Origin: Solirubrobacter soli DSM 22325
Lineage (GTDB): Bacteria > Actinomycetota > Thermoleophilia > Solirubrobacterales > Solirubrobacteraceae
DNA: 64,000 nt
NCBI RefSeq assembly: GCF_000423665.1
Contig: NZ_KE384072.1
Span: forward strand, 124,001 to 188,000
Reading direction: 5' to 3'
The position numbers and the translations under genes are program-made. The notes beneath the pieces were generated by a model. That model was not told the DNA's origin and made no database searches. It worked only from the letters and a program-made list of their open reading frames with translations. This document shows, in pieces, positions 4,178 to 31,877 of the stretch; within the stretch, counting starts at the first letter, position 1, and each line of letters begins with the position of its first letter.

Positions 4178-4212
4178 CTTCTGACTCGCCTACAAGCGAG
4201 CGAGGAGAGAGC

Positions 4213-5205: not shown

Positions 5206-5217
5206 GGGAGCTTGGAC

Positions 5218-7316: not shown

Positions 7317-8071
7317 GCGTCGTCGTGGTGACGGGCGGTGCGCGCGGGATCGGCCGCGGCATCGCCCTGCGGTTGTCCGATGACGGCCACGACGTCGCGG
7401 TCGCCGATCTCCCGTCGATGCGTCCCGAGACCGATGCCGTCGCCGCGGAGGTCTCGGGTCTCGCTCTGGACGTCGACGTGAGCGATCCCGCCCAGGTCGA
7501 CGAGATGATCGGCGCCGTCGTGGAACGTTTCGGCCGTCTGGACGTGATGGTGGCCAACGCCGGGATCGCCCAGGTCGCGCCGCTGCTCGACGTCACGCCG
7601 GAGGACTTCGACCGGCTGATGGCGGTCAACCTGCGCGGCGTCTTCCTCTGCTACACGGCCGCCGCGCGGCAGATGATCGCCCAGGGCGGCGGCGGGAAGA
7701 TCATCGGCGCGGCGTCGATCGCCGCCCACAAGGGGTTCGGCATGCTCGGGCACTACAGCGCCTCGAAGTTCGCCGTGCGCGGGCTGACCCAGGCGGCGGC
7801 GCAGGAGTGGGCGCAGCACGGGATCACCGTCAACGCCTACTGCCCGGGCATCGTCGGGACCGCGATGTGGGAGCTGATCGATGAGAAGCTGGCGGAGCAC
7901 ATGGGCCTGCAGAAGGGCGAGGCGCTCGCGCAATTCTCCGAGCTGATCACGTTGGGCCGGGTCGAGACGCCGGACGACGTGGCGTCCTTCGTCTCGTACC
8001 TGGCGTCGCCCGACTCCGACTACATGACCGGGCAGTCCGTGATGATCGACGGAGGGGTGTTGTTCGCATGA
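7313..8071 (+). CDS. Acetoin/diacetyl reductase (SDR family)
   Basis: A 252-residue classical short-chain dehydrogenase. NAD(P) motif TGGARGIG near the N-terminus, NAG at ANAGIAQ, and the catalytic triad Ser135, Tyr148, Lys152 (HYSASKFAV). The C-terminal half ([21 protein letters not shown]) closely resembles BudC/ButA diacetyl and acetoin reductases that interconvert diacetyl, acetoin and 2,3-butanediol. The location between acoC and a zinc butanediol dehydrogenase supports that role. GTG start overlaps the acoC stop (GTGA); its own stop overlaps the next ATG. Stereospecificity cannot be told from sequence. Confidence 0.88.
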
Positions 8072-9135
8072 AGGCCGCCGTGTTCCATGGCCCGCGCGAC
8101 ATCCGGCTCGAGGACGTCCCGGAGCCGGACGTCCGGCCGGGGAGCGTCAAGGTCAAGGTCGACTGGTGCGGGATCTGCGGGACCGACCTGCACGAGTACC
8201 TCGCCGGCCCGATCTTCATCCCGCCCCCGGGCTCCCCCCACCCGATCACGGGTGAGACGCTGCCGCTGACGCTGGGCCACGAGTTCGCGGGCTCGGTCGT
8301 CGACGTGGGCGACGGGGTCGAGGGCGTGTCGGAAGGCGACGCGGTCGCGATCGAGCCGGTCTTCCGCTGCGGCGAATGTCCCGCGTGTCTGCGGGGCGCG
8401 CCCAACCTGTGCGAGAAGCTCGGCTTCTACGGGCTGATGGGCGGCGGTGGCGGCATGTCCGAGTACGCCGTCATGCCCGCCTACATGATCCACGCGTTGC
8501 CCGACGGGCTGAGCTCCGAGCAGGGCGCGCTGGTCGAGCCGATCGCGGTCGGCCTGCGCGCGGTGCGCCGTGCCGGCTTCCAAGCGGGGCAGAGCGCGGT
8601 CGTGTTCGGCGGCGGCCCGATCGGCGCGGTCACCGTCCAGTGCCTGAAGGCGCTGGGCGCGGGCCAGATCATCGTCGCCGAGGTCGCCGAGGCCCGCAAG
8701 CGCAAGGCGCTGGAGATCGGCGCCGACCACGTCATCGATCCGTCGCAGGAGGACGTCGTCGCCCGCGTGCGCGAGCTCACGGGCGGCGAGGGCGCCGAGC
8801 ACTCCTTCGACGCCGCCGGCATCCAGGCGACCCTCACCGCCGCCCTGGGCGCCACCCGCAAGGGCGGCGCGCTGACGATCATCTCGATCTGGGAAGGCCC
8901 GGTGCAGCTCAACCCCAACGACATCGTGCTCGCCGAGCTCGACGTCCGCGGAACGATCTGTTACACGCCGGAGGACTTCTCCGACACGATCACGATGCTC
9001 CGCGACGGCACGATCTCGACCGAGGGCATCATCACCGAGCGCATCGAGCTCGACGACGTCGTCACCGGCGGCTTCGACGAGCTCGTCGAACACAAGGACC
9101 GCCACGTGAAGATCCTCGTGCGCTCACCCGCCTGA
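8068..9135 (+). CDS. 2,3-Butanediol dehydrogenase (zinc-dependent MDR family)
   Basis: A 355-residue medium-chain alcohol dehydrogenase. The catalytic zinc site is seen at [11 protein letters not shown] and GHEFAG, the structural zinc cysteines in [15 protein letters not shown], and the NAD-binding Rossmann glycines at [10 protein letters not shown]. The insertion [13 protein letters not shown] between the zinc ligands is a mark of (R,R)-butanediol dehydrogenases. It would oxidise 2,3-butanediol to acetoin, feeding the Aco complex encoded upstream. Last gene of the operon; its stop is 6 bases from the converging azoreductase, without a recognisable terminator hairpin. Confidence 0.9.
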
Positions 9136-19037: not shown

Positions 19038-19958
19038 ATGCTGCGGTTCATGTTCGAGCTGCATCAGCGAGTGATGGATTTGGTGCTTGAGGCCGAGAAA
19101 TCCATCACTCACCCCGACGTCCTGGTGGCGAAGCGGGCCGCGCGTGAGCACGGCGTGCTGACGCGGGCGGAGCTGCACGAGTGCGGGCTCGACGATGACG
19201 CGATCGGCGTGCGCGTTCGCAACGGGCGGCTGCATCGCCGGTTCACGGGCGTGTACGTGGTCGGCTACGAGGTGTTGTCGCTGGACGCGTGTTTTCTCGC
19301 TGCGGTGAAGGCATGCGGTCCCGACGCGGTGCTCAGTCACTTCTCAGCCGCCGTATTGCATCGCTTGCTCGAGTGGGATGCCCGCGCGCCGGAGGTGACG
19401 ACCCGGACGGCGCGCAAGCATCCAGGGCTGCGGACCCATCGCGCGAAGACGATCGAACGCTGCCACGTCAGGGGCATCCCGGTGACGCCCGTGCTGCGCA
19501 CGCTCATCGACCTCGCCGGCTCGCGGCTACCTGACGGCCGGTTGCGCCGCGCGGTCAACGAGGCGCTCAATCAGCGCGCGATCCGGCTCGCCGATCTCGT
19601 CTCGAGCCGCCATCGCGGCGCGCGACGCCTGCGCAAGATCGTCGCGTCGGCCGCGCCGACGATGAACGAGTTCGAGGACGCGCTGCTGGCGCTGCTCGTG
19701 GACGGTGGTCTCCCGATGCCGCTGGTCGGCCAGTGGTACCTCGGCTTCAAGCCCGACTTCCGTTGGCCGGAGCGGCGGGTGATCGTCGAGGCCGACGGCA
19801 GGCGGACGCACGATCAGGCGCTCGCGCGAGCGGACGACGCGGCGCGTCAGGCGGTGTTCGAAGCGCACGGGGAGACGGTCGTGCGCGTGTCCTGGCGACA
19901 GGTGACCCTTGAGCCGCGGGCGAGCCTGCGCCGGATCGAGCGCGCGCTTCAGGCATGA
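19038..19958 (+). CDS. AbiEi-like / DUF559 domain protein
   Basis: A protein of up to 306 residues with two parts: an N-terminal winged-helix of the AbiEi antitoxin type (VAKRAAREHGVLTRAELHECGLDDDAI) and a C-terminal DUF559 domain of the Vsr-like nuclease fold (PDFRWPERRVIVEADGRRTHDQ, with Asp, Glu and Lys-like positions). The family is strongly amplified in Solirubrobacterales; its role is unknown and no toxin partner lies next to it. Start is uncertain: ATG 19038, ATG 19050 or GTG 19126 are possible, and a palindromic repeat element at 19069-19110 lies between them, so the shorter version is plausible. Confidence 0.7.
   Translation: MLRFMFELHQRVMDLVLEAEKSITHPDVLVAKRAAREHGVLTRAELHECGLDDDAIGVRVRNGRLHRRFTGVYVVGYEVLSLDACFLAAVKACGPDAVLSHFSAAVLHRLLEWDARAPEVTTRTARKHPGLRTHRAKTIERCHVRGIPVTPVLRTLIDLAGSRLPDGRLRRAVNEALNQRAIRLADLVSSRHRGARRLRKIVASAAPTMNEFEDALLALLVDGGLPMPLVGQWYLGFKPDFRWPERRVIVEADGRRTHDQALARADDAARQAVFEAHGETVVRVSWRQVTLEPRASLRRIERALQA
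19069..19110. repeat. Palindromic dispersed repeat, copy 1
   Basis: Perfect 13-bp stem (19069-19081 with 19098-19110; core GTGATGGATTT/AAATCCATCAC) around a 16-nt loop. The right half (AGGCCGAGAAATCCATCACT) recurs with one change in copy 2 at 26550-26570. Low-GC core compared with the surroundings. It falls near the 5' end of the DUF559 gene. Confidence 0.7.
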
Positions 19959-20836
19959 GCGATCTCCTCGGCCACCTCACGCAGGCGCGCGACGACCGGC
20001 AGGTCGCGCCCGCGCGGCCAGGCGAGCGCGATGCCGACGGTCGGCTCCGGCGCCGTGAAGCGCCGGTAGACCGCGCCGGGCACGCGCAGCGTCCGCGAGC
20101 GCTCGAGCATGATGAAGCTCACGCCCGCGCCCTCGGCCACGGCGTGCACGAGCCGCTCCTCCTCGGGTTCCGTGCGCGTGACCGCCGGCCACAGACCGTC
20201 GCCGTAGACCGCGCCGAGCATCTCCTCCCACGGCCCCGGTCCGTGGTCGCGCGGCCACCACACGAGCGGCTCCCCGTGCAGGTCGGCGGGGTCGATCGCG
20301 CGGCGGCGGGCGAGCGGATGGGCCTTGGGGAGCACGCACACGAGCGGCTCGCGGGCCAGTTCGTGCTCCTCGATGCCCGGGTCCAGCAGCGGCGGGCGCA
20401 CGAAGGCGACGTCGATCAGGCCGTGCCGCAGCTGCTCCGCGTGCAGGCTCGTGTAGCCGACCGAAAGATCGAGGGCGACGTCCGGGTAGCGGGCGCGGAA
20501 GGCCTCGACGATCTCGCCGGCGAGGCCGCCGGTGAGCGAGCGGGTGAGCGAGAGCCGCAGCCGCCCGCGGGAGCCCGATCCGGCCGCGCGGGCACGCTCG
20601 GCGGCCTGGGCGGCGCGGGCGAGGACGTCGCGCGCGTCGTCGAGCAGCGCGATCCCGGCGGGTGTGAGCGCGACGCCGCGGCGGTTGCGGTCGAAGAGCC
20701 GCACGCCCAGCTCCTCCTCGAGCGCACGCACCTGTTGGGAGACGCTCGGCTGCGACAGGTGCAGCTGCTCGGCGGCGCGGCGGAAGTGCAGCTCCTCCGC
20801 GACGGCGACGAACGCTCGGAGTTGCCGCAGCTCCAC
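19949..20836 (-). CDS. LysR family regulator, probable controller of the P450-dikinase operon
   Basis: A 295-residue LysR-type regulator. Winged helix at residues 1-60 (MELRQLRAFVAVAEELHFRRAAEQLHLSQPSVSQQ region) and effector-binding domain from about 90 (GRLRLSLTRSLTGGLAGEIVEAF). The effector half resembles the BenM/CatM-like aromatic-responsive group in length and layout, though this is only an impression. GTG start at 20836 with TATCAT 7 nt upstream, so probably leaderless. It diverges from the P450-kinase operon with an 84-base gap, the classic arrangement for LysR activation of a neighbouring catabolic operon. Confidence 0.88.
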   Translation of the reverse strand: MELRQLRAFVAVAEELHFRRAAEQLHLSQPSVSQQVRALEEELGVRLFDRNRRGVALTPAGIALLDDARDVLARAAQAAERARAAGSGSRGRLRLSLTRSLTGGLAGEIVEAFRARYPDVALDLSVGYTSLHAEQLRHGLIDVAFVRPPLLDPGIEEHELAREPLVCVLPKAHPLARRRAIDPADLHGEPLVWWPRDHGPGPWEEMLGAVYGDGLWPAVTRTEPEEERLVHAVAEGAGVSFIMLERSRTLRVPGAVYRRFTAPEPTVGIALAWPRGRDLPVVARLREVAEEIAHA

Positions 20837-20843
20837 GAGGCCG

Positions 20844-20859
20844 ATGATAGGCGCTGCCT
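20844..20859 (-). promoter_or_regulatory. LysR promoter -10 box and adjoining inverted repeat
   Basis: On the minus strand TATCAT (20844-20849) is followed by 7 nt and the GTG at 20836. Directly behind it lies AGGC-GCT-GCCT (20849-20859), a short inverted repeat that could be the regulator's own binding half-site. For the divergent operon, TACCGT at 20906-20911 lies 9 nt before the P450 GTG. Confidence 0.4.
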
Positions 20860-20920
20860 TTCACAGACGCGCGAATTCGTCTTGATCCGCACAAGCGATC
20901 TGGCGTACCGTCGCGCCGCA

Positions 20921-22978
20921 GTGGAGGAGAGACCACTCAGCTGCTCGTTCCGCCCGTTCGAGCTCGCCGACCCGTTCGCGTTCTACGCCCGTGCCCGCGC
21001 CGAGGAGCCGGTGTTCTTCAGCGAGGCGCTCGGCTACTACGTCGTCACGCGCTACGCGGACATCCACGCGATCTTCAAAGCGCCGACGGTCTTCAGCTCG
21101 GAGAACACGCAGGCGCCCTACAAGCCACGACCGGCGGAGGTCGAGCGGGTGCTGGACGAGGGCGACTTCCGCGCTTACAGCGGGCTCTCGGGCCGCCAGC
21201 CGCCCGAGCACACCCGCCTGCGCGGGTTCATCGCCAAGGCGTTCACGCCACGGCGGGTCGCGGCGCTGGAGCCGCAGATCCGCGAGCTGACGACGACCAT
21301 GATCGACCGCTTCGCGTCGCGTGGGCACGCCGATCTCGTCGAGGCGCTCACCCACGAGCTCCCCGCGCTCGTGATCTTCCGGTTGCTCGGCATCCCCGAT
21401 GCGGACGTCCCACGCGTCAAGGAGTGGGCGGCGAGCCGGGTGTTCCTCAACTTCGGCGATCTGCCCGTGTCCGAGCAGGTCGCGCACGCCGAGAACCTCG
21501 TCCGCTACTGGCGCTACTGCATCGAGCTGATCGAGGCGCGCAAGCGCGAGCCGCGCGACGACCTGCCGTCGGCGCTGGTCGCGCTCGACGACGCGTCGAT
21601 CAGCCTCGACGAGATGGCCGGGCTGGTCTATGGGCAGCTCACCGCGGGGCATGAGACGACCTCGGCGCTGCTCGCGAGTGGCATCAAGGAGCTGCTGGGA
21701 CAACGTGAGCGGTGGGTGGAGCTCACGCGCGACGAGTCGCTGATCCCGACCGCGGTCGAGGAACTGCTGCGGCTCGTGGCGCCGGTGTTCGCGTGGAAGC
21801 GCCGCGTCAAGCAGGACACGCGGATCGGGGAGGTCACGCTGCCCGCGGGCGCGAACGTGCTGCTCCTGCTGGGCTCTGCCAACCACGACGACACCGTGTT
21901 CGCCGACCCCGAGGCGATCGACCTGCGGCGCGAGAACGCGCGCGGTCACCTCGCGTTCGGCCACGGCATCCACTTCTGCCTGGGCGCGTCACTGGCGCGG
22001 TTGGAGGCGCGCGTGGTCCTGGAGGAGCTGACCGCGCGCCTGCCCGGGCTGGAGCTCGTGCCCGGCCAGACGTTCGACTACCCGGCGAACACGACCTTCC
22101 GCGCGCCCGCCGCCGTGCACGTGCGCTGGCCGGTCCCGGTGCTGCCGTTGGAGGACTGCGCCGATGTCACGGTCGTGGGCGGGAAGGCGCTGAGCCTGGG
22201 CACGATGCTCCGCGCCGGGTTCCCGGTCCCGGGTGGGTTCGCGGTGACCACGCATGCGTTCGCGTCGGGCGGTGTGCCCGAGGCGGAGATCCGCGCGGCG
22301 TACGCGGCACTCGGCGACGACGTCCCGGTCGCCGTGCGCTCGAGCGCGACCTCCGAGGACGCCGTCGACGCCTCCTGCGCCGGCCAGTACGACACCTACC
22401 TGTGGGTCACGGGCGCCGACGAGGTGATCCGCCACGTCGAGCGCTGCTGGGGATCGATGAACACCGGCCGCGCGCTCGCCTACCGGCACGATCGGGGCAT
22501 CGACGAGCCGCTGATGGCCGTCGCCGTGCAGCGGATGGTGCCGGCGCGGGCGGCCGGGGTCGCGATGACCCTCAACCCCTCCAACGGCGACCGGTCGAAG
22601 ATCGCCGTCGAGGCCGCGCCGGGCGTCGGCGAGGCGGTCGTCGGCGGCGAGGTCACCCCCGACCACTACCTGGTCGACAAGGTGATGCTCGACGTCGTCT
22701 CCACCCGCCCCGTCACGGACTGTCTGAGCGCGGTCGAAGTGCGGCAGGTCGCGCGGTTGGCCAAGCTCGTCGAGCAGCACTACGGGCGCCCGCAGGACAT
22801 CGAGTGGGCGATCGACGCCTCCGGCGCGGTCTTCCTGCTCCAAGCGCGCCCTGAGACCGTCTGGGCGAACAAGCCGCTGCGCACCACGTCATACGCGACC
22901 GGGATCGGAAGCCTGGTCAGCACCCTCATCAACCCGCTGGCCCAGAGGAGGACCTCCGGTGTCGACGCCGACCATTAA
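20921..22978 (+). CDS. Cytochrome P450 fused to PEP-synthase-type ATP-grasp domain
   Basis: A 685-residue two-domain protein. Residues 1 to about 405 are a soluble bacterial P450: oxygen-activating I-helix AGHETT at 242-247, ExxR helix in EELLRLVAP, and heme loop FGHGIHFCLG with the ligand Cys353. From about 412 to 675 an ATP-grasp nucleotide-binding domain of PEP synthase/PPDK follows: VGGKALSLG (GGK at 420-422), VPGGFAVTT, VRSSATSEDA, AGVAMTLNPSNGD, GEAVVGGEVTPDHY, and the ending QDIEWAIDASGAVFLLQARPET. No stop or frameshift separates them. In the cre (p-cresol) pathway of Corynebacterium glutamicum, a dikinase first phosphorylates the phenol OH and a P450 then oxidises the alkyl group; here one kinase half and the P450 are one chain. 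No ferredoxin or reductase gene is nearby. GTG start at 20921. Confidence 0.9.
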   Translation: MEERPLSCSFRPFELADPFAFYARARAEEPVFFSEALGYYVVTRYADIHAIFKAPTVFSSENTQAPYKPRPAEVERVLDEGDFRAYSGLSGRQPPEHTRLRGFIAKAFTPRRVAALEPQIRELTTTMIDRFASRGHADLVEALTHELPALVIFRLLGIPDADVPRVKEWAASRVFLNFGDLPVSEQVAHAENLVRYWRYCIELIEARKREPRDDLPSALVALDDASISLDEMAGLVYGQLTAGHETTSALLASGIKELLGQRERWVELTRDESLIPTAVEELLRLVAPVFAWKRRVKQDTRIGEVTLPAGANVLLLLGSANHDDTVFADPEAIDLRRENARGHLAFGHGIHFCLGASLARLEARVVLEELTARLPGLELVPGQTFDYPANTTFRAPAAVHVRWPVPVLPLEDCADVTVVGGKALSLGTMLRAGFPVPGGFAVTTHAFASGGVPEAEIRAAYAALGDDVPVAVRSSATSEDAVDASCAGQYDTYLWVTGADEVIRHVERCWGSMNTGRALAYRHDRGIDEPLMAVAVQRMVPARAAGVAMTLNPSNGDRSKIAVEAAPGVGEAVVGGEVTPDHYLVDKVMLDVVSTRPVTDCLSAVEVRQVARLAKLVEQHYGRPQDIEWAIDASGAVFLLQARPETVWANKPLRTTSYATGIGSLVSTLINPLAQRRTSGVDADH

Positions 22979-24740
22979 GCGCTTCGCCAGCCCGTACGAC
23001 GACGCGCCGCCGCCCGAGGCCGCGGGGTGGGAGGAGCTCTACCCGTACTACCTGCACTTCCGGGAGGACCGGCGCGAGGCCGAGGAGGCGCGCTTCTGGT
23101 TCGCGGACACGCAGCACTGGCCGACGGTGTTCAAGCCGTTCGACACGATCACGGTCGAGTTCGCGATCCGCTGCCTCGGCCAGTACAACACGCGCCACTA
23201 CGTGATCCCGCCGGCGAACGGGATCGACTACCGCGTCCACAACGGCTACGTCTACATGTCGCCGGTCGGCGTGCCGGAGGAGGAGATCCCGGCGCGCGTG
23301 CCGGAGTTCCTCGAACGCGCGGGCTACTACTTCGCCAACTGGCCGTCGCTGCTGGAGAACTGGCACTCCAAGATCCGCGGGGTGATCGGCGAGCTCGAGG
23401 CGATCCGCTTCGAGCCGCTCCCCGAGCGGGTGCCGCTGGGTGACATCACGAGCGGCAAGGGCCTGGACCCGCACGCCGCGATGACCCATGACTACAACCG
23501 GCTGATCGAGCTGGCGTACACGGCGTTCCAGTACCACTTCGAGTTCCTCAATCTCGGCTACGTCGCCTACCTGGACTTCTTCGGCTTCTGCCAGGAGGCG
23601 TTCCCCGGGATCAGCGACCTCGGGATCGCGAAGATGGTCCAGGGCATCGAGGTCGACCTCTTCCGGCCCGACGACGAGCTCAAGCGGCTCGCGCTGCTGG
23701 CGGTCTCGCGCGACGTGGACGTCTCGCGCGGGCTCTCCGGCATCACCGACGAGGTCTGGCTGGACGCGTGGGAGGCGGCCAAGGACCCGTGGTTCAACTT
23801 CTCGTCGGGCAGCGGCATGTACAGCACCGACAAGGTCTGGCTGGACCACCTCGAGATCCCGTTCGGCTTCATGGCGGGGTACGTCGGGGAGCTGCGGGCG
23901 GGCAAGGACATCGCGCGGCCGACGGCGGCGATCAGCGCCGAGCGCGACCGGGTCACGAGCGAGTACCGCGCGCTGCTGCCCGCGGACGCGCAGGAGGCGT
24001 TCGACGCCAAGCTCGGGCTGTCGCGGCTCGTGTTCCCGTACGTCGAGAACCACAACTTCTACATCGAGCACTGGTCGCTCTCGCTGTTCTGGCGGCGCGT
24101 GCGGGAGCTCGGGCAGGTGCTGGCCGACGCCGGCTTCTGGGCGGACGCCGACGACATCTTCCTGCTGCGCCGCGACGAGGTCCCGCAGGCGCTCTTCGAC
24201 TACGGCAACGGCTGGGCCGTCGGGGCCGAGTGCGCGGGGCCGTACCACTGGCCGGCGGAGCTCGAGCGGCGCAAGGGCATCCTCGCCGCCTTGGGCTCCA
24301 AGCCGCCGCTGCCGGCGATGAACGAGCCGCCCGCGGTGGTCACCGAGCCGTTCACGATCATGCTCTATGGCATCACGTCCGAGCGGGTGGGTCAGTGGCT
24401 CTCGGGCGGCGAGTCCGACGCCGGGCTGAGTGGCATGGCAGCGTCGCCGGGCGCGGTCGAGGGCGTCGCGCGGGTCGTCCTGGACGCCGACGCGCTGGCC
24501 TCGATCCAGCCGGGCGAGATCCTCGTCTCGCGCATCACGGCGCCGTCCTGGGGGCCGGTGTTCAGCCAGATCTCGGCGGTGGTCACCGACATCGGCGGGA
24601 TGATGAGCCACGCCGCCATCGTCTGCCGCGAGTACGGCCTGCCGGCGGTCACCGGCACGGGCAGCGCGACGACGGCGATCCAGACGGGGCAGCGGATCCG
24701 CGTCGACGGCGACAGCGGGACGGTGACGCTGGTTTCGTGA
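22959..24740 (+). CDS. PEP-utilising (His-swivel) subunit of an aryl phosphate synthase-like dikinase
   Basis: A 593-residue protein. The long N-terminal part (1 to about 480), alpha-helical and aromatic-rich, would hold the acceptor substrate, as in rifampin phosphotransferase and phenylphosphate synthase. The C-terminal PEP-utilising mobile domain (about 485-593) has the phosphohistidine motif GGMMSHAAIV with His551 and the flanking GLPAVTGTG. It has no ATP-binding domain of its own, which the preceding fusion protein supplies; together they form a split dikinase. GTG start with a strong ribosome site (AGAGGAGG about 9 bases upstream), overlapping the previous gene by 20 bases. Counterpart of a CreH/CreI subunit (inference by domain match). 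Confidence 0.88.
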   Translation: MSTPTIKRFASPYDDAPPPEAAGWEELYPYYLHFREDRREAEEARFWFADTQHWPTVFKPFDTITVEFAIRCLGQYNTRHYVIPPANGIDYRVHNGYVYMSPVGVPEEEIPARVPEFLERAGYYFANWPSLLENWHSKIRGVIGELEAIRFEPLPERVPLGDITSGKGLDPHAAMTHDYNRLIELAYTAFQYHFEFLNLGYVAYLDFFGFCQEAFPGISDLGIAKMVQGIEVDLFRPDDELKRLALLAVSRDVDVSRGLSGITDEVWLDAWEAAKDPWFNFSSGSGMYSTDKVWLDHLEIPFGFMAGYVGELRAGKDIARPTAAISAERDRVTSEYRALLPADAQEAFDAKLGLSRLVFPYVENHNFYIEHWSLSLFWRRVRELGQVLADAGFWADADDIFLLRRDEVPQALFDYGNGWAVGAECAGPYHWPAELERRKGILAALGSKPPLPAMNEPPAVVTEPFTIMLYGITSERVGQWLSGGESDAGLSGMAASPGAVEGVARVVLDADALASIQPGEILVSRITAPSWGPVFSQISAVVTDIGGMMSHAAIVCREYGLPAVTGTGSATTAIQTGQRIRVDGDSGTVTLVS

Positions 24741-25318
24741 GCGACTACGCGGAGGTCTGGGCCGCGGCCCGGCCGTACATGCGGGCGCGCAAGAACGACG
24801 TGCACGTCCCCTTGTCGTTCGGGTACGCCGAGCGGCTCCTCGGCGCGTGCCCCGAAGCCGACGCGGACGTCGTGCTGCTCGGCATCCTGCTGCATGACAT
24901 CGGGTGGGCGGTCGTCGATCAGGAGGCGATCTACCGCGATGGGTTCGGGCCGGGGATGATGGAGTCCGACGTGCGGATCGCGCACGAGAAGGAGGGCGCG
25001 CGGCTGGCACGGGCGATCCTCGAGCCGCTCGGCTATGCGGCGTCCTTGGTCGACGAGGTGGCGGCGATCATCGACGGCCACGACACCCGCGCCCGCGCGC
25101 TCTCGCACAACGACGAGCTGGTCAAGGACGCGGATCGCCTGTGGCGCTTCAGCGTCACGGGGGTCAGCGTCGCGTGCGACTGGTTCGCGCTGACACCGCG
25201 CGAGTACGCCGAGCGCCTGGTGGAGCAGTTCGCGCTGTTCTTCACGCCGGTGGCGGAGGAGATCGCGCGCGCCGAGCTCTCCGAGACCCGGCGGGCATTG
25301 CGGATCGAGGACCTGTGA
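24737..25318 (+). CDS. HD domain phosphohydrolase, first of a tandem pair
   Basis: A 193-residue HD-superfamily metal-dependent phosphohydrolase. Conserved metal ligands: His near VHVPLSF, HD in LLHDIGW, His-Asp in IDGHDTR and Asp in VKDADRLWR. The next gene is a clear paralogue with the same spacing. In the cre pathway an HD protein (CreD) removes the phosphate after oxidation; the same role is likely here. GTG start overlaps the swivel-protein stop (GTGA) and its own stop overlaps the next start, so tight coupling. Confidence 0.87.
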   Translation: MSDYAEVWAAARPYMRARKNDVHVPLSFGYAERLLGACPEADADVVLLGILLHDIGWAVVDQEAIYRDGFGPGMMESDVRIAHEKEGARLARAILEPLGYAASLVDEVAAIIDGHDTRARALSHNDELVKDADRLWRFSVTGVSVACDWFALTPREYAERLVEQFALFFTPVAEEIARAELSETRRALRIEDL

Positions 25319-25884
25319 TCGACACGATCTACGCGCTCGCCGAGCCGTACTGGCATGTGCGGTCGGGCGAGATCCACGTGCCGGCGTCGTTCGCGTTGGC
25401 GCAGCGGCTGCTCGACGCGCTGCCGGAGGCCGACCCGCTGATCGTCCTGCCCGCGATCCTCCTGCACGACGTCGGCTACGCGCGGGTTCCGGAGGAGACG
25501 CATCACGCGGGCCTGCAGGACGCGCCCGGCGGCTGGGACGCCGACATCACCCGCCGGCACGAGATCGAGGGCGCGCGGCTGGCGCGAGAGATCCTTGCTC
25601 GGGTGGGGATGGACGCGGAGCGTCGCGCCCGGATCGTCGAGATCGTCGACGGTCATGACTCGCGTCTGGAGGCGTTGTCGTTGGAGGACGCGATCGTCAA
25701 GGACGCCGACAAGCTCTGGCGCTACACGGAGAGCGGCGTCCGCGTGACGCACGTGTGGGTCGGCCGGACGCCGGAGGCGTTCATGGACTACGTCGAGGCC
25801 AAGATCGACGTCTGGCTGTTCACCGCGCCCGCGCGGGTGCTCGCGCGGGAGTCCCTCGACGCGGCCCGGGCATGCGCGTACTGA
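25315..25884 (+). CDS. HD domain phosphohydrolase, second of a tandem pair
   Basis: A 189-residue HD protein paralogous to its upstream neighbour: LLHDVGY, VDGHDSR and VKDADKLWRYTESGV match LLHDIGW, IDGHDTR and VKDADRLWRFSVTGV. All metal ligands are retained, so both copies should be active or the pair may act as a heterodimer. Two copies where a single aryl-phosphatase would do suggest different substrates (for example alcohol and aldehyde stage) or a mixed oligomer. GTG start by four-base overlap. Confidence 0.87.
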   Translation: MIDTIYALAEPYWHVRSGEIHVPASFALAQRLLDALPEADPLIVLPAILLHDVGYARVPEETHHAGLQDAPGGWDADITRRHEIEGARLAREILARVGMDAERRARIVEIVDGHDSRLEALSLEDAIVKDADKLWRYTESGVRVTHVWVGRTPEAFMDYVEAKIDVWLFTAPARVLARESLDAARACAY

Positions 25885-26534
25885 TCACGGGCGCCGGCGG
25901 TGGCCTCGGCCGCGCGTTCGCATCGGCGTTCGCCGCCCGGGGCGACGAGGTGCTCGCCGCCGACCTGAGCGGGACGGAGCTGACGGTCGATGTCTCCGAC
26001 GAGGCGAGCGTCCGGACGCTGGCCGCGACCGTCGGCCCGATCGACGTCCTCGTCAACAACGCGGCGATCTACGCGGGGCTCACGCGGGCGCCGTTCGACG
26101 AGTTGTCGGTGGACGAGTGGGACCGCGTGATGGCGGTCAACCTCAAAGGCCCGTGGCTGTGCGCGAAGCACTGCCGCGTGCGTGACGGCGGAGCGATCGT
26201 CAATGTGTCCTCGGCGACGGTCTTCAGCGGCTCGCCGCAGTGGGCGCACTACGTGGCGTCCAAGGCGGGGCTGATCGGGCTCACGCGGACGCTCGCGCGG
26301 GAGCTGGGGGCGCGCGGCGTGCGGGTGAACGCCCTCGCCCCGGGCTTCACGCTGACCGAGGCGAGCCGCGAGCTGATCTCCGACGCCGAGAGCTACGGCG
26401 TCGACCGCGGGGCGTTGAAACGCGGCGCGCAGCCGAGCGACATCGTCGGCGCCGCGCTCTTCCTCGCGTCCTCGCACAGCGCGTTCATCACCGGCCAGAC
26501 GCTCGTGGTCGACGGCGGGCGGCAGTTCGTGTGA
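25872..26534 (+). CDS. SDR dehydrogenase closing the P450-dikinase operon
   Basis: A 220-residue classical SDR: NAD(P) motif TGAGGGLG at 6-13, NNAA at DVLVNNAAIY, Ser in VSSATVFSG, catalytic YVASK (HYVASKAGL), and FITGQTLVVDGG. Short first domain: after the cofactor strand it moves directly to DLSG, favouring NAD. Overlaps the second HD gene by 13 bases. In context it would oxidise the benzylic alcohol formed by the P450, as the dehydrogenase of the cre pathway does (inference). Ends inside a palindromic repeat that could end transcription. Confidence 0.88.
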   Translation: MRVLITGAGGGLGRAFASAFAARGDEVLAADLSGTELTVDVSDEASVRTLAATVGPIDVLVNNAAIYAGLTRAPFDELSVDEWDRVMAVNLKGPWLCAKHCRVRDGGAIVNVSSATVFSGSPQWAHYVASKAGLIGLTRTLARELGARGVRVNALAPGFTLTEASRELISDAESYGVDRGALKRGAQPSDIVGAALFLASSHSAFITGQTLVVDGGRQFV

Positions 26535-26596: not shown

Positions 26597-29431
26597 TCAG
26601 TGCGGCGTAGCGAGCTCGTGGACGAGCGAGCCGAGCTGGTAGCCGATCATGCGCGCGCGGCCGATCTGGAAGCGGCTCCACGGACGCTGCGAGATGGCGT
26701 AGGCCTCGAGGTGGCCGACCACCTCGCCCGCGCGCGTGATCGGAAGCGTCAGGCAGGAGCCGAAGCCGAGCGCCTGCAGCCATTCGGCGTCGGGGTCGTC
26801 GGCCAGCAGCTGCGTGGCGCGGTGCACGTCCGCCCCGGTGATCCGGACCTCGTCGGCCTGCAGCTCGGTCGCCAACGGCGGCAGGCACGCGTCGAGCTCC
26901 TCCCGCGTGCGGACCGCGGCCAACCGGCGCGAGAGCAGCTCCAGCCGGCGGTCGTAGTCGGGGTCCGCGCCCGCCGAGGTGCCGGACAGGGTGGCCTGGA
27001 AGGAGTGCAGGCACGCCGCGGTCGCCTCCGGCGAGACGGGAACCCAGGGCGGGGACGGGCGCGCGATGCCGTAGCCCTGGCCGTAGGCGACGTCGAGGTC
27101 CGCGAGCCGCTCGAGCTCCGCCAAGGTCTCGACGCCCTCGGCACAGACCGCGGCGTCGATGTCACGCGCGTAGCGCACGAATGAGCTGATCAGCGGCGCC
27201 TTGGCCGGGTCCAGGTCGACGCCCGTGGTCAGCGCGCGGTCGAGCTTGATCACGTCCGGCTGCAGGCGCATCACGTGGGTGAGGCCCGCGTAGCCCGCGC
27301 CGGTGTCGTCGACCGCGAGCCGCGCGCCACGCCCGCGCAGACCCGCCAGCGCCTTGTGGATGGCGGGGTCGCCGGACACCAACTCGTTCTCGGTGATCTC
27401 GATCACGAGCGCGTCCAGCCGCTCCGGCAGGACGCGCATCACCTGCTCGGACAGCAGCGAGCTCGGCGAGAGGTTGAACGTCAGGTACGTGCCCGCCGGG
27501 CGGCTCGGAGCCCAGCCCAGGGCGGCCTGGATCGCCTTGGCCTCGAGCGCGTAGCCGAGCCCGTGGCGATGTGCCTGGGCGAACCACAGGTCCGGCGTGC
27601 GCAGCGGCTCGCGGTTGAAGCGCGAGAGCGACTCATAGCCCGCGACCCGGCCGGTGCGCAGGTCCATGATCGGCTGGAAGACCATCGTGATGCCGGCCGG
27701 GTCGGCGAGCACCGACTCGATCTCCGCGCGGGACTCGTCGTCGCGCGCGAACCATTGCCCGCCGACGGTGTGGGCGTCGTTCTCCAGGTCCGGCTCGTAG
27801 AGCCGCGCGCGACGCTTGCCGGCGCGCTTGGCGTCGTACATGGCGAGGTCGGCCTTGCGCAGGAACTCCTCGACGCCGCGGTCGTTGATCGTGCTGACGG
27901 CCATGCCGACGCTGGCGCTCACGACGACCACGCCGTTGGCCAGCTCGACGGGCTGGCGCAGCGCCTCGAGCACCCGCGCCGCGGTCGCCTTCAGCGCGGA
28001 CGCGTCGCTGACGCTCTCGACCAGCACGCCGAACTCGTCACCGCCGAGGCGGGCCGCGGTGTCACCCGCGCGCAGGCACGAGGTGAGCCGCTCGGCGACC
28101 TCCTGCAGCAGCCGGTCGCCGTCCGCGTGTCCCCGGGTGTCGTTGACGCTCTTGAAGTCGTCGAGGTCGACGAACAGCACGCCGACGTGGGTGTCGGCGC
28201 GCGAGCCGCGGGTCAACGCGTGCTCGACGCGGTCGTAGAACAGCGCGCGGTTGGCGAGCCCGGTCAGCGCGTCGTGGAACGCCCGGTGGCGCAACTGCTC
28301 CTCGAAGGCCTTGCGGTCCTCGACGTCGCGCACGGTGAGGACGATGCCCTGGACGCGCTCGTCGTCGAGCAGGCTGGTCGCCGCCGCCGCGACGTGGCGG
28401 AAGGCGCCGTCGGCGTAGCGCATCCTCCACTCGGCCTCCTGCGGCGTGTCGGGCTTCTCGGCCACGGCGGCGACGAACGCGCGCACCTGGGCGGCGTCGT
28501 CGACATGCACGAAGTCCAGGAGCGGCGAGCCTTCCACCGTCGCGTCGCCGAAGATCGGGACGACGGTGCCCGTGAGCATCCGCATCGTCCCGTCGGGGGC
28601 GACGATCATGATGCAGTCCGACGAGTTGCGGACGATCGTCTGCAGCCGCTCGCGGCTGCCCTCCGCGGCGCGCTGGAGCTCGAGCGCGTTCTCGATCCGG
28701 CCGCGCCGCTCGTGGGCGAACAGCGCCAGCAGGCCGCCGAGCGGCAGGACCAGCAGCACCAGCAACGGCTCGACGAGGCCGGCGAGCGCGGCGAGCAAGC
28801 CCACGCAGGCCAGGCCGGCGTCGACGAGGTTCAACCACGCCACCCCGCCCAGCTCCGAGCGCAGGTCGACGCCGAGGCCGATCCCGAGCCGCACCCAGGT
28901 GATCGCCAGGTCGGAGACGACGCACGCCACCAGCGCGGCGAGGCAGAGCGCGGCGGTCGTCCAGACGTCGTCGGTCGGGCCGGCGAGGCCGACGACGAGC
29001 GCGGGCAGGACGGAGTAGGCGGCGTCGCCGATCGTCAGGACGAGCCGCTGCGGCGGGATCTGGCCGCGCGCCACCTTGATCAGCGACCTCGGCGCCTGAC
29101 CCGCAAGCACCGCCCACGGGATCAGCCCGGGCGGCAGCAGCACGAGCATCGGGATGAACGCGAGCTGGACGGGGCTCGTCGTGCCCTCGCCCACCTCGAA
29201 GGAGATCCGCAGCAGCACGCCGTAGATCGCCACCAGCAGCAGGGTCGTCCCCCAGCCGGCGCGACCGTCGGGCCACAGCAGGGTCAGCGCAGTCGCGCTC
29301 AGCACGAACACGATCGCGACGGCCAACTCGGTCAGCAGCTCGCGACGCTCGGCCCGCCGGTGCGCACGGGCTCGGGCCCGCTCGATGTGATCGAGGGCCT
29401 CGGGGGAGAGCTCGTTGAGCGCGGGGCCCAT
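26597..29431 (-). CDS. Membrane PAS-GGDEF-EAL-GAF cyclic di-GMP enzyme
   Basis: A 944-residue signalling protein. Residues about 30-240 hold a hydrophobic multi-pass sensor (six or more helices). Then come PAS (about 255-375), GGDEF (about 385-545) with intact GGDEF at 463-467 and an RxxD inhibitory site (RAGD, 454-457), EAL (about 570-790) and a C-terminal GAF-like domain (about 800-944). The EAL signature is ESL at 600-602, but the other metal and catalytic residues are present (NLSPSS, EITEN, DDTGAG, IKLDRA, AEGVET, GQGYGIARP), so phosphodiesterase activity is likely. It may switch between making and breaking cyclic di-GMP. ATG at 29431 without a ribosome site. Confidence 0.92.
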   Translation of the reverse strand: MGPALNELSPEALDHIERARARAHRRAERRELLTELAVAIVFVLSATALTLLWPDGRAGWGTTLLLVAIYGVLLRISFEVGEGTTSPVQLAFIPMLVLLPPGLIPWAVLAGQAPRSLIKVARGQIPPQRLVLTIGDAAYSVLPALVVGLAGPTDDVWTTAALCLAALVACVVSDLAITWVRLGIGLGVDLRSELGGVAWLNLVDAGLACVGLLAALAGLVEPLLVLLVLPLGGLLALFAHERRGRIENALELQRAAEGSRERLQTIVRNSSDCIMIVAPDGTMRMLTGTVVPIFGDATVEGSPLLDFVHVDDAAQVRAFVAAVAEKPDTPQEAEWRMRYADGAFRHVAAAATSLLDDERVQGIVLTVRDVEDRKAFEEQLRHRAFHDALTGLANRALFYDRVEHALTRGSRADTHVGVLFVDLDDFKSVNDTRGHADGDRLLQEVAERLTSCLRAGDTAARLGGDEFGVLVESVSDASALKATAARVLEALRQPVELANGVVVVSASVGMAVSTINDRGVEEFLRKADLAMYDAKRAGKRRARLYEPDLENDAHTVGGQWFARDDESRAEIESVLADPAGITMVFQPIMDLRTGRVAGYESLSRFNREPLRTPDLWFAQAHRHGLGYALEAKAIQAALGWAPSRPAGTYLTFNLSPSSLLSEQVMRVLPERLDALVIEITENELVSGDPAIHKALAGLRGRGARLAVDDTGAGYAGLTHVMRLQPDVIKLDRALTTGVDLDPAKAPLISSFVRYARDIDAAVCAEGVETLAELERLADLDVAYGQGYGIARPSPPWVPVSPEATAACLHSFQATLSGTSAGADPDYDRRLELLSRRLAAVRTREELDACLPPLATELQADEVRITGADVHRATQLLADDPDAEWLQALGFGSCLTLPITRAGEVVGHLEAYAISQRPWSRFQIGRARMIGYQLGSLVHELATPH

Positions 29432-29596: not shown

Positions 29597-30217
29597 ATGC
29601 CATTTCTGCGCACTGCAGCTTTGGCGTTCGGGCTGGTCGTCGTTTCCGCCGCACCCGCTCACGCCAAAAGTGCCATCGCCAACCCTTATGACTGCAAGCC
29701 GAACCCGTCGCTGACGCAACCGTTCGCGCCGGCCAACGATCTCGGCCTGTACACGCCCGTCGCCAATCAGGGCCTCGAGGCCGGGGCGACGAGCTGGACG
29801 CTGTCCGGCGGCGCCGCCGTCGTCGCGGGCAATGAGCCGTGGAAGGTCGCGGGCGCGGCCGACAGCCACGCGCTCGACCTGCCGAGCGGCGCTTCGGCCG
29901 TCACGTCCCCGATCTGCATCGATCAGACGTATCCCTACTTCCGCCTGTTCGCGCAGAACGCCGGTTCCGGCAAGCGCAGCCTCGAGATCGACGTCCTCTA
30001 CTACGACACGAAGGGCAAGCTGCTCGCGACCAAGCCGTACGGCTACGAGTCCGGCTCCGGCGGTTGGGCGCCGACCCCCACGATCGCGATCGACGTCTGG
30101 GACAAGAGCCCCGCCGCGGCCGCCGCGCCCGTCGCCTTCCGCTTCATGCCGAAGGGCAAGGACGCGCACTTCGTGATCGACGACGTCTTCGTCGATCCCT
30201 ACGCCCGGAGCCGCTGA
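29597..30217 (+). CDS. Secreted protein of unknown function
   Basis: Not recognised. A 206-residue protein with a clear signal peptide (MPFLRTAALAFGLVVVSAAPAHA, cleavage after AHA) and a mature beta-rich domain of about 180 residues. The pattern (NQGLEAGATSWTLSGGAAVVAGNEPW, IDQTYPYFRLFAQN, and VIDDVFVDPY at the end) suggests a jelly-roll or carbohydrate-binding-like sandwich of a type common in secreted actinobacterial proteins. A perfect ribosome site (AAGGAGGT at 29579-29586) precedes the ATG by 10 bases. Its end overlaps the GntR gene by 19 bases. Confidence 0.75.
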   Translation: MPFLRTAALAFGLVVVSAAPAHAKSAIANPYDCKPNPSLTQPFAPANDLGLYTPVANQGLEAGATSWTLSGGAAVVAGNEPWKVAGAADSHALDLPSGASAVTSPICIDQTYPYFRLFAQNAGSGKRSLEIDVLYYDTKGKLLATKPYGYESGSGGWAPTPTIAIDVWDKSPAAAAAPVAFRFMPKGKDAHFVIDDVFVDPYARSR

Positions 30218-30858
30218 GACGTCTCCCACGCCGTGCGGGTGAGCGCGAGATGCTCACCCGCGGCCCGGGCGACCGCGTCCGGGTCGTCGGCGACGATCGC
30301 GTCCAGGATCGTCGCGTGGCCCTCGGCCACTTGGACGAGCGCCTCGTCCTCTTCCGCGAAGCGGGCGAGCCGCAGGTGATCGAGGATCTCGTCGACGACG
30401 TCGACGATCCGCGGGTTGCCCGCGCGGGCGAGCAGGCCGAGGTGGAAGGTGCGGTCGAGGTCGAGGAACCGGCTCGTGTCGCGCTTGCGCGCGGCCTTGA
30501 TGCCCTTGGTGACGAACGTGCGCAGGTGCGCCGCGTCCTCCTCGTCGAGCGTGCCGGCGAGCCGGACGAGCATCGGGATCTCCACCAGGCCGCGGAGCTC
30601 GAGCGCGGCGTCCAGGTCGGCCGCGGAGTGCTCGACGACGCGGAAGCCGCGGTTGCGGACCTGCTCGACCATGCCGCGGTTGGTGAGCTCGAGCAGCGCT
30701 TCGCGCACAGGGGTGATCGAGACGCCCATCCGCGCCGCCAGCGCGGGCGCGGAGTGGATCTCCTCCGGCGCGATCTCGCCATAGATGATCGCCGCGCGGA
30801 TCCGGCGGACGGCTTCGCCGCGCAGGGAGGAGCGCTCGATGGCGCTGTCGAGGCTCAT
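30199..30858 (-). CDS. GntR (FadR subfamily) regulator
   Basis: A 219-residue regulator: GntR winged helix at 10-75 (IIYGEIAPEEIHSAPALAARMGVSITPVREALLEL region) and an all-helical FCD ligand domain with likely metal ligands (Asp in DLDRTFHLGLLARAGN, His in HLRL, His in AGEHLAL). FCD-type GntR proteins usually bind organic acids and repress the adjacent catabolic genes. It is the second gene of a two-gene operon: its ATG overlaps the Rieske oxygenase stop (ATGA). The palindrome upstream of the oxygenase is its likely operator. Confidence 0.88.
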   Translation of the reverse strand: MSLDSAIERSSLRGEAVRRIRAAIIYGEIAPEEIHSAPALAARMGVSITPVREALLELTNRGMVEQVRNRGFRVVEHSAADLDAALELRGLVEIPMLVRLAGTLDEEDAAHLRTFVTKGIKAARKRDTSRFLDLDRTFHLGLLARAGNPRIVDVVDEILDHLRLARFAEEDEALVQVAEGHATILDAIVADDPDAVARAAGEHLALTRTAWETSQRLRA

Positions 30859-31877
30859 GGGCGTTTCGCCAGTCCTTGTTCGCGCATGGCTTTGCGGTAG
30901 TTGATCGCGACCGCGTCGAACTTCAGGTGCATCTCGGCGGCGAGGTCGAACGGGACGCGCTCCGGCCGCTGGGACTCGACGACGTGGCGGTCCTGCTCGA
31001 AGATCGTGTCCTCGAAGGACTGCAGCACGGTTGCGGGCTGCTCGGGGTCGTAGTTGCGGGCGATCGTCACGTAGCCGATGCAGTGGTCTTCGTCGACGGG
31101 CTGGGACGCGAAGAAGTACACCATGCCTTTGGCTCCGCCCCATCCCAGCCTCAGCAGGATCGTGTACGGGAGATGGAGCTGATAGCGGCTGCGCCGCTCC
31201 GGCGCCTGGGTCGCGTCGTTGGCGAAGACAGGGAAGTCGTCGGTGTTGGGCGCCTCGGGGCGGACGATGTCGTAGCGCAGGATGTGGCCGTCGATCGTGA
31301 CGCTGTAGTCGGGGACGACGGGGCGCTCGGGGTCGCCCAGCAGGCCGGGATGCACCCACGGGAAGTGCCCGAAGTCGGTGAAGTTCTCCAGCTGGCGGCT
31401 CGCGTCGGAGTTCCAGGCGTACGGGCCGGCCTGGACGACGATCCAGTCGTCTTCGTTCTCGAGCTCAGGGATGTCGGGGAGGTCGTAGCGCGGCTCCTCG
31501 AACGCGACCCAGATGTGCCCGTAGCGCTCGAGCGCGGTGAACGCGTCGACGCGCGCCTTGCCGGGGATGTTCGTCGGGTCGGCGAGCTGGGGGATGTGGG
31601 TGCAGATCCCGTCGCCGCCGTACTGCCACCCGTGGTACGGGCACATGATCCGGTCGCCCACGACCCGGCCGAGCGAGAGCGCGGTGCCGCGGTGGATGCA
31701 CAGGTCGCGCAGGACGTGCACCGCGTGCGTCGAGTCGCGCCAGAGCACCAGGTCCTCCCCCAGCAACCGCACCCGCACCGGCACGTCCGTCACCGCACTC
31801 GAGTACGCGACGGGATGCCAGCAGCGCCGCAGCGCCGCGAAGTCGGGAACGGACGCGGGCGGCTGCTCGACGATCAT
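30855..31877 (-). CDS. Rieske non-heme iron oxygenase, alpha subunit type
   Basis: A 340-residue ring-hydroxylating or demethylating oxygenase. The Rieske 2Fe-2S ligands are C-x-H (LCIHRG, about residues 59-61) and C-x2-H (MCPYHGW, about 79-82). The mononuclear iron site is in ENFTDFGHFPWVH. The size matches the single-component-type phthalate/vanillate/3-chlorobenzoate oxygenase group. No reductase or ferredoxin gene is adjacent, so an electron donor must be supplied elsewhere. Read leaderless from TATCAT 6 nt before the ATG, and followed by its GntR regulator. The aromatic substrate cannot be stated. Confidence 0.88.
   Translation of the reverse strand: MIVEQPPASVPDFAALRRCWHPVAYSSAVTDVPVRVRLLGEDLVLWRDSTHAVHVLRDLCIHRGTALSLGRVVGDRIMCPYHGWQYGGDGICTHIPQLADPTNIPGKARVDAFTALERYGHIWVAFEEPRYDLPDIPELENEDDWIVVQAGPYAWNSDASRQLENFTDFGHFPWVHPGLLGDPERPVVPDYSVTIDGHILRYDIVRPEAPNTDDFPVFANDATQAPERRSRYQLHLPYTILLRLGWGGAKGMVYFFASQPVDEDHCIGYVTIARNYDPEQPATVLQSFEDTIFEQDRHVVESQRPERVPFDLAAEMHLKFDAVAINYRKAMREQGLAKRP

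What the first reader, a model, noticed from the sequence alone, without database searches (positions are those of the whole stretch)
19949..26534. Phosphorylation-first alkylphenol oxidation system with P450 fused to half of the dikinase
A LysR gene diverges from five tightly overlapping genes: P450 plus PEP-synthase ATP-grasp domain in one 685-residue chain, a His-swivel/acceptor protein, two HD phosphohydrolases and an SDR. The set matches the p-cresol cre logic of Corynebacterium glutamicum (dikinase phosphorylates the phenol, a P450 oxidises the alkyl group, an HD enzyme removes the phosphate, a dehydrogenase follows). Seen directly: domains, motifs (Cys353, AGHETT, GGK at 420-422, His551) and gene overlaps. 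Inference: substrate and order of steps. The fusion would hold the phosphorylated phenol near the heme and is not something I know described.
Basis: partly seen in the sequence, partly recalled or inferred. Interest (0 to 1): 0.92.

Follow-up and report, generated by a model that had tools for sequence, protein, structure and literature searches.

The report
P450 fused to phenol-kinase ATP half
A soil bacterium joins, in one protein, the heme enzyme that probably oxidises a phosphate-tagged phenol and the ATP-binding half of the enzyme that puts the tag on; the same joint occurs in three other bacteria, so it is a natural way to test whether the tag serves to hand the molecule from one enzyme to the next.

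Summary
In detail: LysR (19949-20836, minus) diverges from five overlapping genes: a 685-residue P450+ATP-grasp fusion, a swivel/phenol-binding subunit (His551), two HD phosphohydrolases and an SDR. The fusion is real: one open frame in four genomes (three genera, two families of one class). A P450 tree puts the fused P450s beside CreJ (PDB 5GWE; identity recalled) and CreJ-like P450s of two Rhodococcus plasmids (98/93); a swivel-subunit tree groups likewise (100/99). Those plasmids carry the unfused form: P450, ATP-grasp (overlapping as ATGA), swivel, SDR, ferredoxin, reductase, HD, ALDH. So this is a Cre-type, phosphorylation-first alkylphenol oxidation operon whose P450 and ATP-grasp genes have merged. 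Correction: by the HpeHI model the ATP-grasp half binds ATP, not the phenol; the fusion tethers the oxidase to the docking partner of the phenol-phosphorylating subunit. Caveats: the window copy lacks about 42 and 26 residues of the ATP-grasp domain (59 of 62 near-invariant columns kept), lacks the ALDH of two sister operons, and has no local ferredoxin. Substrate and hand-over are inferred. New variant of a known kind.

The parts
19949..20836 (-). LysR-type regulator, divergent from the operon (84-bp gap)
   Evidence: Pfam HTH_1 and LysR_substrate; a 71% identical LysR sits in the same place in AVDCRST_MAG79 (L078), while G735 and G689 have an IclR-type regulator there
20921..22135 (+). P450 half of the fusion (residues 1-405), CreJ-like
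   Evidence: Best PDB match 5gwe, 7.1e-103; Cys353, AGHETT, EELLR; clade with CreJ and Rhodococcus P450s at 98/93
22136..22978 (+). ATP-grasp (PPDK_N) half of the fusion (residues 406-685), HpeI/CreI-like but with two internal in-frame deletions
   Evidence: Pfam PPDK_N 2.2e-71; PDB match to HpeI 9goj 1.8e-54, second to a PEP synthase 9dae 4.9e-56; 59 of 62 near-invariant columns kept
22959..24740 (+). phenol-binding/swivel subunit of the two-component dikinase (HpeH/CreH/PpsA type), phospho-acceptor His551
   Evidence: NF006150 905.7 bits, cut-off 650, the only match over the cut-off in its genome; swivel motif TDIGGMMSHAAI; tree 100/99 with Rhodococcus cre-type swivel proteins
24737..25318 (+). 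HD-domain phosphohydrolase 1, putative aryl-phosphate phosphatase (CreD-like role)
   Evidence: Pfam HD 9.9e-11; 46% identical to the HD gene inside the R. ruber cre-type operon
25315..25884 (+). HD-domain phosphohydrolase 2, paralogue of HD1
   Evidence: Pfam HD 6.6e-11; 43% identical to HD1
25872..26534 (+). SDR dehydrogenase, putative alcohol dehydrogenase (CreG-like role)
   Evidence: Pfam adh_short_C2 3.8e-50; 59% identical to the SDR of the R. ruber operon

Best explanation
This is a Cre-type alkylphenol-oxidation operon in which the genes for the P450 and for the ATP-binding subunit of the phenol dikinase have merged. Likely cycle: the ATP-grasp half of the fusion binds ATP and phosphorylates His551 of the swivel subunit when it docks; the swivel swings to its own phenol site and makes a 4-alkylphenyl phosphate; the P450 half, held next to that docking site, oxidises the alkyl group of the aryl phosphate; an HD enzyme removes the phosphate; the SDR (and in two sister operons an ALDH) oxidises the alcohol onward to a hydroxybenzoate-type acid. 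Shown here: the fusion, its presence in four genomes, domain and motif content, gene order, kinship of P450 and swivel with Cre-type proteins. Inferred: substrate class, order of steps, and that the fusion improves transfer from kinase to oxidase.
For: Single open frame with the same domain order in 4 genomes. P450 tree of 65 rows: four fused P450s 100/100, with CreJ plus two Rhodococcus P450s 98/93. Swivel tree of 31 rows: window, L078, L079 with the Rhodococcus pair 100/99. R. ruber Y14 and R. oxybenzonivorans S2-17 plasmids carry P450-ATPgrasp-swivel-SDR-Fdx-FAD oxidoreductase-HD-ALDH, the P450 stop overlapping the ATP-grasp start; both blocks lie beside toluene-monooxygenase-type genes, annotated as toluene-4-monooxygenase in the second; that such enzymes make p-cresol is general knowledge. 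The R. ruber P450 is 73% identical to 5gwe. ALDH lies between the two HD genes in L078 and L079. HpeHI biochemistry gives the roles of the two dikinase parts.
Against: No activity is known. The window ATP-grasp domain lacks about 42 residues after ~449 and about 26 after 595, the second taking a conserved Lys. No ferredoxin or reductase match of 45 bits or more in the window or the sister stretches held, no ALDH in the window operon. Rare and patchy: 0 of 6 other genomes of the genus, 3 of 232 in the order including its own. The ATP-grasp tree groups the fused domains only together with one long, unsure branch, and joins them to the Rhodococcus ones only through a split of 89/88. A P450 44.5% identical to the window's on R. 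jostii RHA1 pRHL3 has no dikinase among its annotated neighbours, so such kinship alone does not prove the pathway. AlphaFold model too poor to use (pLDDT 54).
Confidence: 0.78

Rival explanations
1. The fusion is only a mechanical tether: the two genes overlapped, lost a stop, and the joined chain works no better than separate subunits.
For: In the two unfused operons the genes already overlap by 4 nt, so a single event can join them; linkers differ in length and sequence (16-31 residues between the P450 end and GGK in the four fusions).
Against: The join is kept in three genera of two families while the ATP-grasp halves drifted to 57-75% identity.
Confidence: 0.45
2. The window copy is decaying: ATP-grasp function is lost and only the P450 or nothing works.
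For: Two in-frame deletions in the ATP-grasp domain and no ALDH between the HD genes; the window has the longest end branch of the four fused rows in the ATP-grasp tree.
Against: Frames intact, third-position G+C stays high, 59 of 62 near-invariant columns kept; the window-to-L078 branch ratio is alike in the ATP-grasp (0.60 vs 0.29) and P450 (0.25 vs 0.11) trees, so the ATP-grasp half is not specially relaxed.
Confidence: 0.2
3. It is a Hpe- or phenylphosphate-type system in which the phosphorylated phenol is carboxylated, the P450 being incidental.
For: The swivel family includes HpeH and PpsA (PMC12167813); the next clade in the tree (L081-L090) has no P450 match nearby.
Against: No carboxylase among the 34 window proteins scanned with Pfam; the operon has HD and SDR and, in two sisters, ALDH; the Azoarcus swivel protein next to phenylphosphate carboxylase genes (L151) falls far away.
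Confidence: 0.05
4. Sequencing or assembly artefact.
For: The host assembly is rated 8% contaminated.
Against: Three other assemblies show the same join, one of them a single 5.95-Mb contig.
Confidence: 0.01

Closest known systems
Cre pathway of Corynebacterium glutamicum (CreHI dikinase, CreJEF P450 system, CreD phosphohydrolase, CreG, CreC)
   Same: CreJ-clade P450, two-component dikinase halves, HD phosphohydrolase, SDR; ALDH in two sister operons
   Different: P450 and ATP-grasp are one chain; no ferredoxin or reductase gene found in the operon; two HD genes; ALDH missing in the window. The C. glutamicum cluster itself was not fetched; only the 5GWE sequence was compared
Unfused cre-type operons on Rhodococcus ruber Y14 (NZ_CP129900.1) and R. 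oxybenzonivorans S2-17 pRB98 (NZ_CP021355.1) plasmids
   Same: Same P450-ATPgrasp-swivel order, SDR, HD, ALDH; R. ruber P450 45% and swivel 57% identical to the window's
   Different: Two separate genes overlapping by 4 nt; ferredoxin and FAD oxidoreductase present; IclR regulator
HpeHI of Rhodococcus rhodochrous GD02 (PMC12167813, PMC9618137)
   Same: Same two-part dikinase: ATP-grasp plus swivel/substrate subunit
   Different: Separate subunits that form no stable complex; the cluster holds a carboxylase, no P450 is mentioned in the passages seen
Rifampin phosphotransferase (RPH)
   Same: Same domains (ATP-grasp, substrate domain, swivel His)
   Different: All three in one chain, no P450, different substrate
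Self-sufficient P450 fusions (CYP102, CYP116B; recalled)
   Same: P450 fused to a functional partner in one chain
   Different: There the partner is the electron donor; here it is half of the enzyme of the presumed preceding step

Membership tests
Cre-type alkylphenol oxidation pathway | P450 of the CreJ clade with intact heme site | tested here: met
   Tree 98/93, Cys353, AGHETT, EXXR; that 5GWE is CreJ is recalled
Cre-type alkylphenol oxidation pathway | Two-component dikinase: ATP-grasp protein plus swivel/substrate protein with phospho-His | tested here: met
   PPDK_N and PEP-utilizers domains, His551 motif, swivel tree 100/99
Cre-type alkylphenol oxidation pathway | Complete ATP-grasp domain | tested here: inconclusive
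   59 of 62 near-invariant columns kept but two in-frame deletions; the three relatives lack these deletions
Cre-type alkylphenol oxidation pathway | HD phosphohydrolase in the operon | tested here: met
   Two HD proteins, 46% and 40% identical to the HD inside the R. ruber operon
Cre-type alkylphenol oxidation pathway | Alcohol dehydrogenase (SDR) | tested here: met
   59% identical to the R. ruber SDR; activity untested
Cre-type alkylphenol oxidation pathway | Aldehyde dehydrogenase in the operon | tested here: not met
   Absent from the window operon; present in L078 and L079; unknown in G689, whose contig ends in the swivel gene; 22 ALDH matches at 1e-60 elsewhere in the genome, best 43%
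Cre-type alkylphenol oxidation pathway | Own ferredoxin and ferredoxin reductase in the operon | tested here: not met
   No match of 45 bits or more to the R. ruber pair in the window or in the stretches L078-L080; 12 reductase matches at 1e-10 elsewhere in the genome
Cre-type alkylphenol oxidation pathway | ATP-dependent phosphorylation of 4-cresol and oxidation of the aryl phosphate | not testable with these tools
   Needs biochemistry
Hpe / phenylphosphate carboxylation pathway | Carboxylase genes next to the dikinase | tested here: not met
   None among 34 window proteins scanned with Pfam, operon included; the mechanical gene call lists 61 genes and leaves out LysR
Rifampin phosphotransferase | ATP-grasp, substrate and swivel domains in one chain | tested here: not met
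   ATP-grasp is on the P450 chain, swivel on another

The most novel reading that the evidence does not exclude
The fusion builds a relay: the swivel subunit must dock on the ATP-grasp half once per turnover, so each aryl phosphate is released beside the attached heme pocket and is oxidised before it can diffuse or be dephosphorylated. Phosphate would then be a handle for hand-over between enzymes, not only a trap that keeps phenols in the cell. If so, this is a natural P450 tethered to the enzyme of the preceding step rather than to an electron donor.
Probability: 0.3. Interest if true: 0.85.

Novelty: new variant of a known kind. Interest (0 to 1): 0.66.

Why it matters
The HpeHI authors state that it is unclear why phenol catabolism should start with phosphorylation, and found no stable complex of the two kinase parts (PMC12167813, section 10). 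A natural kinase-oxidase fusion, with unfused cousins for comparison, makes the question of trapping versus hand-over directly testable, and suggests a one-chain design for the alkylphenol oxidation systems already used in biocatalysis (PMC9549646, passages). It also places a Cre-type pathway in genomes of the Thermoleophilia (two of the four carriers are named as such or as Solirubrobacterales) and shows that P450, ATP-grasp and swivel genes stay together as a block.

Tried and rejected
Structure: AlphaFold of the window fusion with a 5-row alignment gave pLDDT 54.2, pTM 0.43; not used, and no fold search was run on it. The second structure job was not used.

Named fusions: the one scan of genome contigs with the four-fusion alignment returned 4 loci: two fusions (AVDCRST_MAG79, RYN_254) and two distant partial matches, Paenibacillus ATP-grasp and Novosphingobium P450. 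Its two short patterns would miss more distant ones, so this is not a census. On plasmids, 0 of 60 records with a match covered 80% of the fusion.

Other P450s close to the clade: the phylum search gave 27 other genomes; 16 stretches from 15 of them were fetched. None had an ATP-grasp match of 40 bits or more, and the only swivel-family match was a partial 31% one in L144; rejected as cre clusters.

Reference CreH and CreI of C. glutamicum were not obtained: the genus of G071, tried as a guess, had 0 of 2 genomes with a CreJ match. NF006150 passes its cut-off in 1 of 14 control genomes, which one is not said.

Active-site residues: positions 81 and 193 named for 5GWE in a docking paper (passages) and two recalled ones do not fall on the expected letters in the chain numbering printed here; left out.

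Artefact by frame slip: rejected. Hpe-type reading: rejected (see rivals). Relaxed selection on the ATP-grasp half: no sign beyond the deletions.

Tree rows: swivel tree 31 rows; pieces under 450 residues were dropped, so L080 and L106-L109 give no row. P450 tree: pieces under 340 residues or 120 bits dropped, number not counted. The ATP-grasp tree used 21 chosen rows.

Papers: the original Cre paper (Du et al. 2016) is not held and is known here only through others' citations. Nine literature searches listed no paper whose title or abstract start tells of a P450 joined to a dikinase ATP-grasp domain; some searches showed 20 of 765, 728 and 39 papers. Seen of each paper: PMC12167813 abstract, outline, sections 8 and 10, passages; PMC9618137, PMC8796525, PMC9549646, PMC10879549 passages only.
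Full report
What is there. The window holds a compact operon: LysR (19949-20836, minus), then on the plus strand a 685-residue P450+ATP-grasp fusion (20921-22978), a 593-residue swivel-bearing subunit (22959-24740), two HD proteins (24737-25318, 25315-25884) and an SDR (25872-26534). Overlaps are 20, 4, 4 and 13 nt. The next long ORF after the SDR runs the other way (26597-29431), so the operon most likely ends there. Codon-position composition is uniform through the fusion. The start codon is not certain (GTG 20921 or TTG 20882).

The fusion is real. In the class sample (399 genomes) the window fusion matched three further genomes at 66-75% identity over the P450 and the start of the ATP-grasp half; the stretches taken show the rest of the ATP-grasp half following in the same frame in all three: G707 (L078), G735 (L079; a single 5.95-Mb contig) and G689 (L080). 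Two have public names, by contigs of the same length and the same matches: uncultured Thermoleophilia bacterium AVDCRST_MAG79 (L078 = L098) and Solirubrobacterales bacterium RYN_254 (L080 = L099). In the window's order 3 of 232 genomes carry it, its own included, and 0 of the 6 other genomes of the genus; in G707's order 1 of 129; in 61 near relatives no match but its own exceeds 304 bits. A phylum sample of 396 genomes searched with the P450 profile gave 28 genomes at 1e-80; the longest open frame in the other 27 is 618 residues, too short for the fusion. The samples overlap. So it is rare and patchy, but shared by three genera in two families.

Kinship. The best solved structures for the P450 half are 5gwe (7.1e-103) and 5xjn/7ccf (9.9e-103), the next is at 2.5e-82; I recall that these are CreJ, no call names them so. 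In a tree of 65 P450s the four fused ones form a clade (100/100) that joins CreJ plus two Rhodococcus P450s at 98/93. The Rhodococcus ones are 73% identical to 5gwe, the fused ones 42-46%. The ATP-grasp half matches a PEP synthase first and HpeI (9goj) second (9GOJ is HpeI). The swivel protein passes the cut-off of NF006150 (PRK08296, named hypothetical protein) and is the only such match in its genome. In a tree of 31 swivel proteins the window, L078 and L079 join the Rhodococcus pair at 100/99. The next clade (L081-L090, 10 rows) has an ATP-grasp match beside it in 9 of 10 loci (L089 starts at a contig edge) and no P450, HD or SDR match in the stretches held. The ATP-grasp tree of 21 rows is weaker: the fused four group with one long-branched row, and the split that joins them to Rhodococcus has 89/88. 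As a caution, R. jostii RHA1 pRHL3 has a P450 44.5% identical to the window's with no dikinase among the annotated features of its 17-kb stretch; it falls outside the CreJ-plus-fusions clade.

The unfused form. Plasmids of Rhodococcus ruber Y14 (NZ_CP129900.1) and R. oxybenzonivorans S2-17 (NZ_CP021355.1) carry IclR, P450, ATP-grasp, swivel, SDR, 2Fe-2S protein, FAD oxidoreductase, HD, ALDH in this order. The P450 stop and ATP-grasp start overlap as ATGA, so loss of one stop or a small slip would join them. Both blocks lie beside toluene-monooxygenase-type genes. This is the content of the Cre pathway as listed in PMC8796525 (CreHI, CreJEF, CreG, CreC, CreD; passage) and PMC9549646 (CreJ core P450, CreE reductase, CreF ferredoxin, CreD; passage).

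Operon comparison. L078 and L079 have an ALDH between the two HD genes; in RYN_254 the contig ends inside the swivel gene, so nothing can be said. In the window the HD genes abut, so ALDH is missing there; 22 ALDH matches at 1e-60 lie elsewhere in the genome, the best 43% identical. No ferredoxin or reductase match of 45 bits or more was found in the window or the sister stretches, while the genome holds 12 reductase matches at 1e-10; redox partners probably come from elsewhere. The regulator is LysR in the window and AVDCRST_MAG79, IclR-type (matches below curated cut-offs) in G735 and RYN_254. R. ruber also has a second HD gene, upstream of IclR, so two HD genes are not peculiar to the fusion.

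The window's ATP-grasp half. It lacks about 42 residues after residue ~449 and about 26 after residue 595, both present in the three sister fusions and in the separate ATP-grasp proteins aligned. Of 62 columns that are at least 95% the same in the other 20 sequences, it keeps 59; it has Cys for Phe at 486 and loses two columns, one a Lys, to the second gap. The ATP-grasp half is less conserved than the P450 half in all six pairs of fusions, and the window-to-L078 branch ratio is alike in both halves. So there is no sign of special relaxation, but its kinase activity is the least certain part. The AlphaFold run was too poor to judge.

Mechanism. From PMC12167813 (sections 8 and 10): the ATP-grasp part presents ATP, the swivel His of the other part takes the phosphate, then swings to the phenol site on the same part; replacing that His abolishes activity; the two parts form no stable complex; RPH is the one-chain homologue. 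Mapped here, the fusion's ATP-grasp half loads His551 of the swivel protein, which phosphorylates the phenol. On this model the phenol is never on the ATP-grasp half. What the fusion can do is place the P450 where the phosphorylating subunit must dock in each turnover. Positions identical in CreJ, two Rhodococcus and four fused P450s but rare in 15 outgroup P450s are many at window residues 60-70 (S60, E61, N62, A65, R70) and 189-200 (H189, N192, L193, V194, Y196, W197, C200); these are candidate contacts for the aryl phosphate, not shown.

Surroundings. The window also holds catechol 1,2-dioxygenase-like, muconolactone isomerase and muconate-cycloisomerase-like genes (60674-62837) with a flavin reductase, and the genome has two neighbouring PF00775 matches on C6. 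The host can probably cleave aromatic rings, which fits but does not prove alkylphenol catabolism.

Verdict.

Noticed in passing
window 60674-63800 (-): Catechol branch: catechol 1,2-dioxygenase-like, muconolactone isomerase (over its cut-off), muconate-cycloisomerase-like, flavin reductase, FAD synthetase domain.
   Followed up: partly
window 30199-31877 (-): GntR/FCD regulator overlapping a Rieske oxygenase with a VanA-type C-terminal domain; possible aromatic O-demethylase or sterol-type oxygenase.
   Followed up: no
window 3233-9135 (+): Acetoin-dehydrogenase-like set: NAD-kinase-like, E1 component, transketolase-type subunit, lipoyl plus alpha/beta-hydrolase, SDR, zinc alcohol dehydrogenase.
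   Followed up: no
L081-L090 (e.g. L083:8300-11239): A swivel plus ATP-grasp dikinase clade, sister to the Cre-type one, with an IclR-type match within the stretch in 8 of 10 loci but no P450, HD or SDR match; possibly Hpe-type, substrate unknown.
   Followed up: partly
L091:8661-15459 and L092:2759-13936: Two copies of the swivel protein in one locus in two genomes of the class (G373, G169); function unknown.
   Followed up: no
L147:8430-18680: R. ruber Y14 plasmid typed as conjugative carries a complete unfused cre-type operon, so this pathway may move between strains.
   Followed up: partly
window 19038-19958 (+): 306-residue ORF whose end overlaps the 3' end of the LysR gene by 10 nt, tail to tail; no Pfam match at 1e-8.
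   Followed up: no
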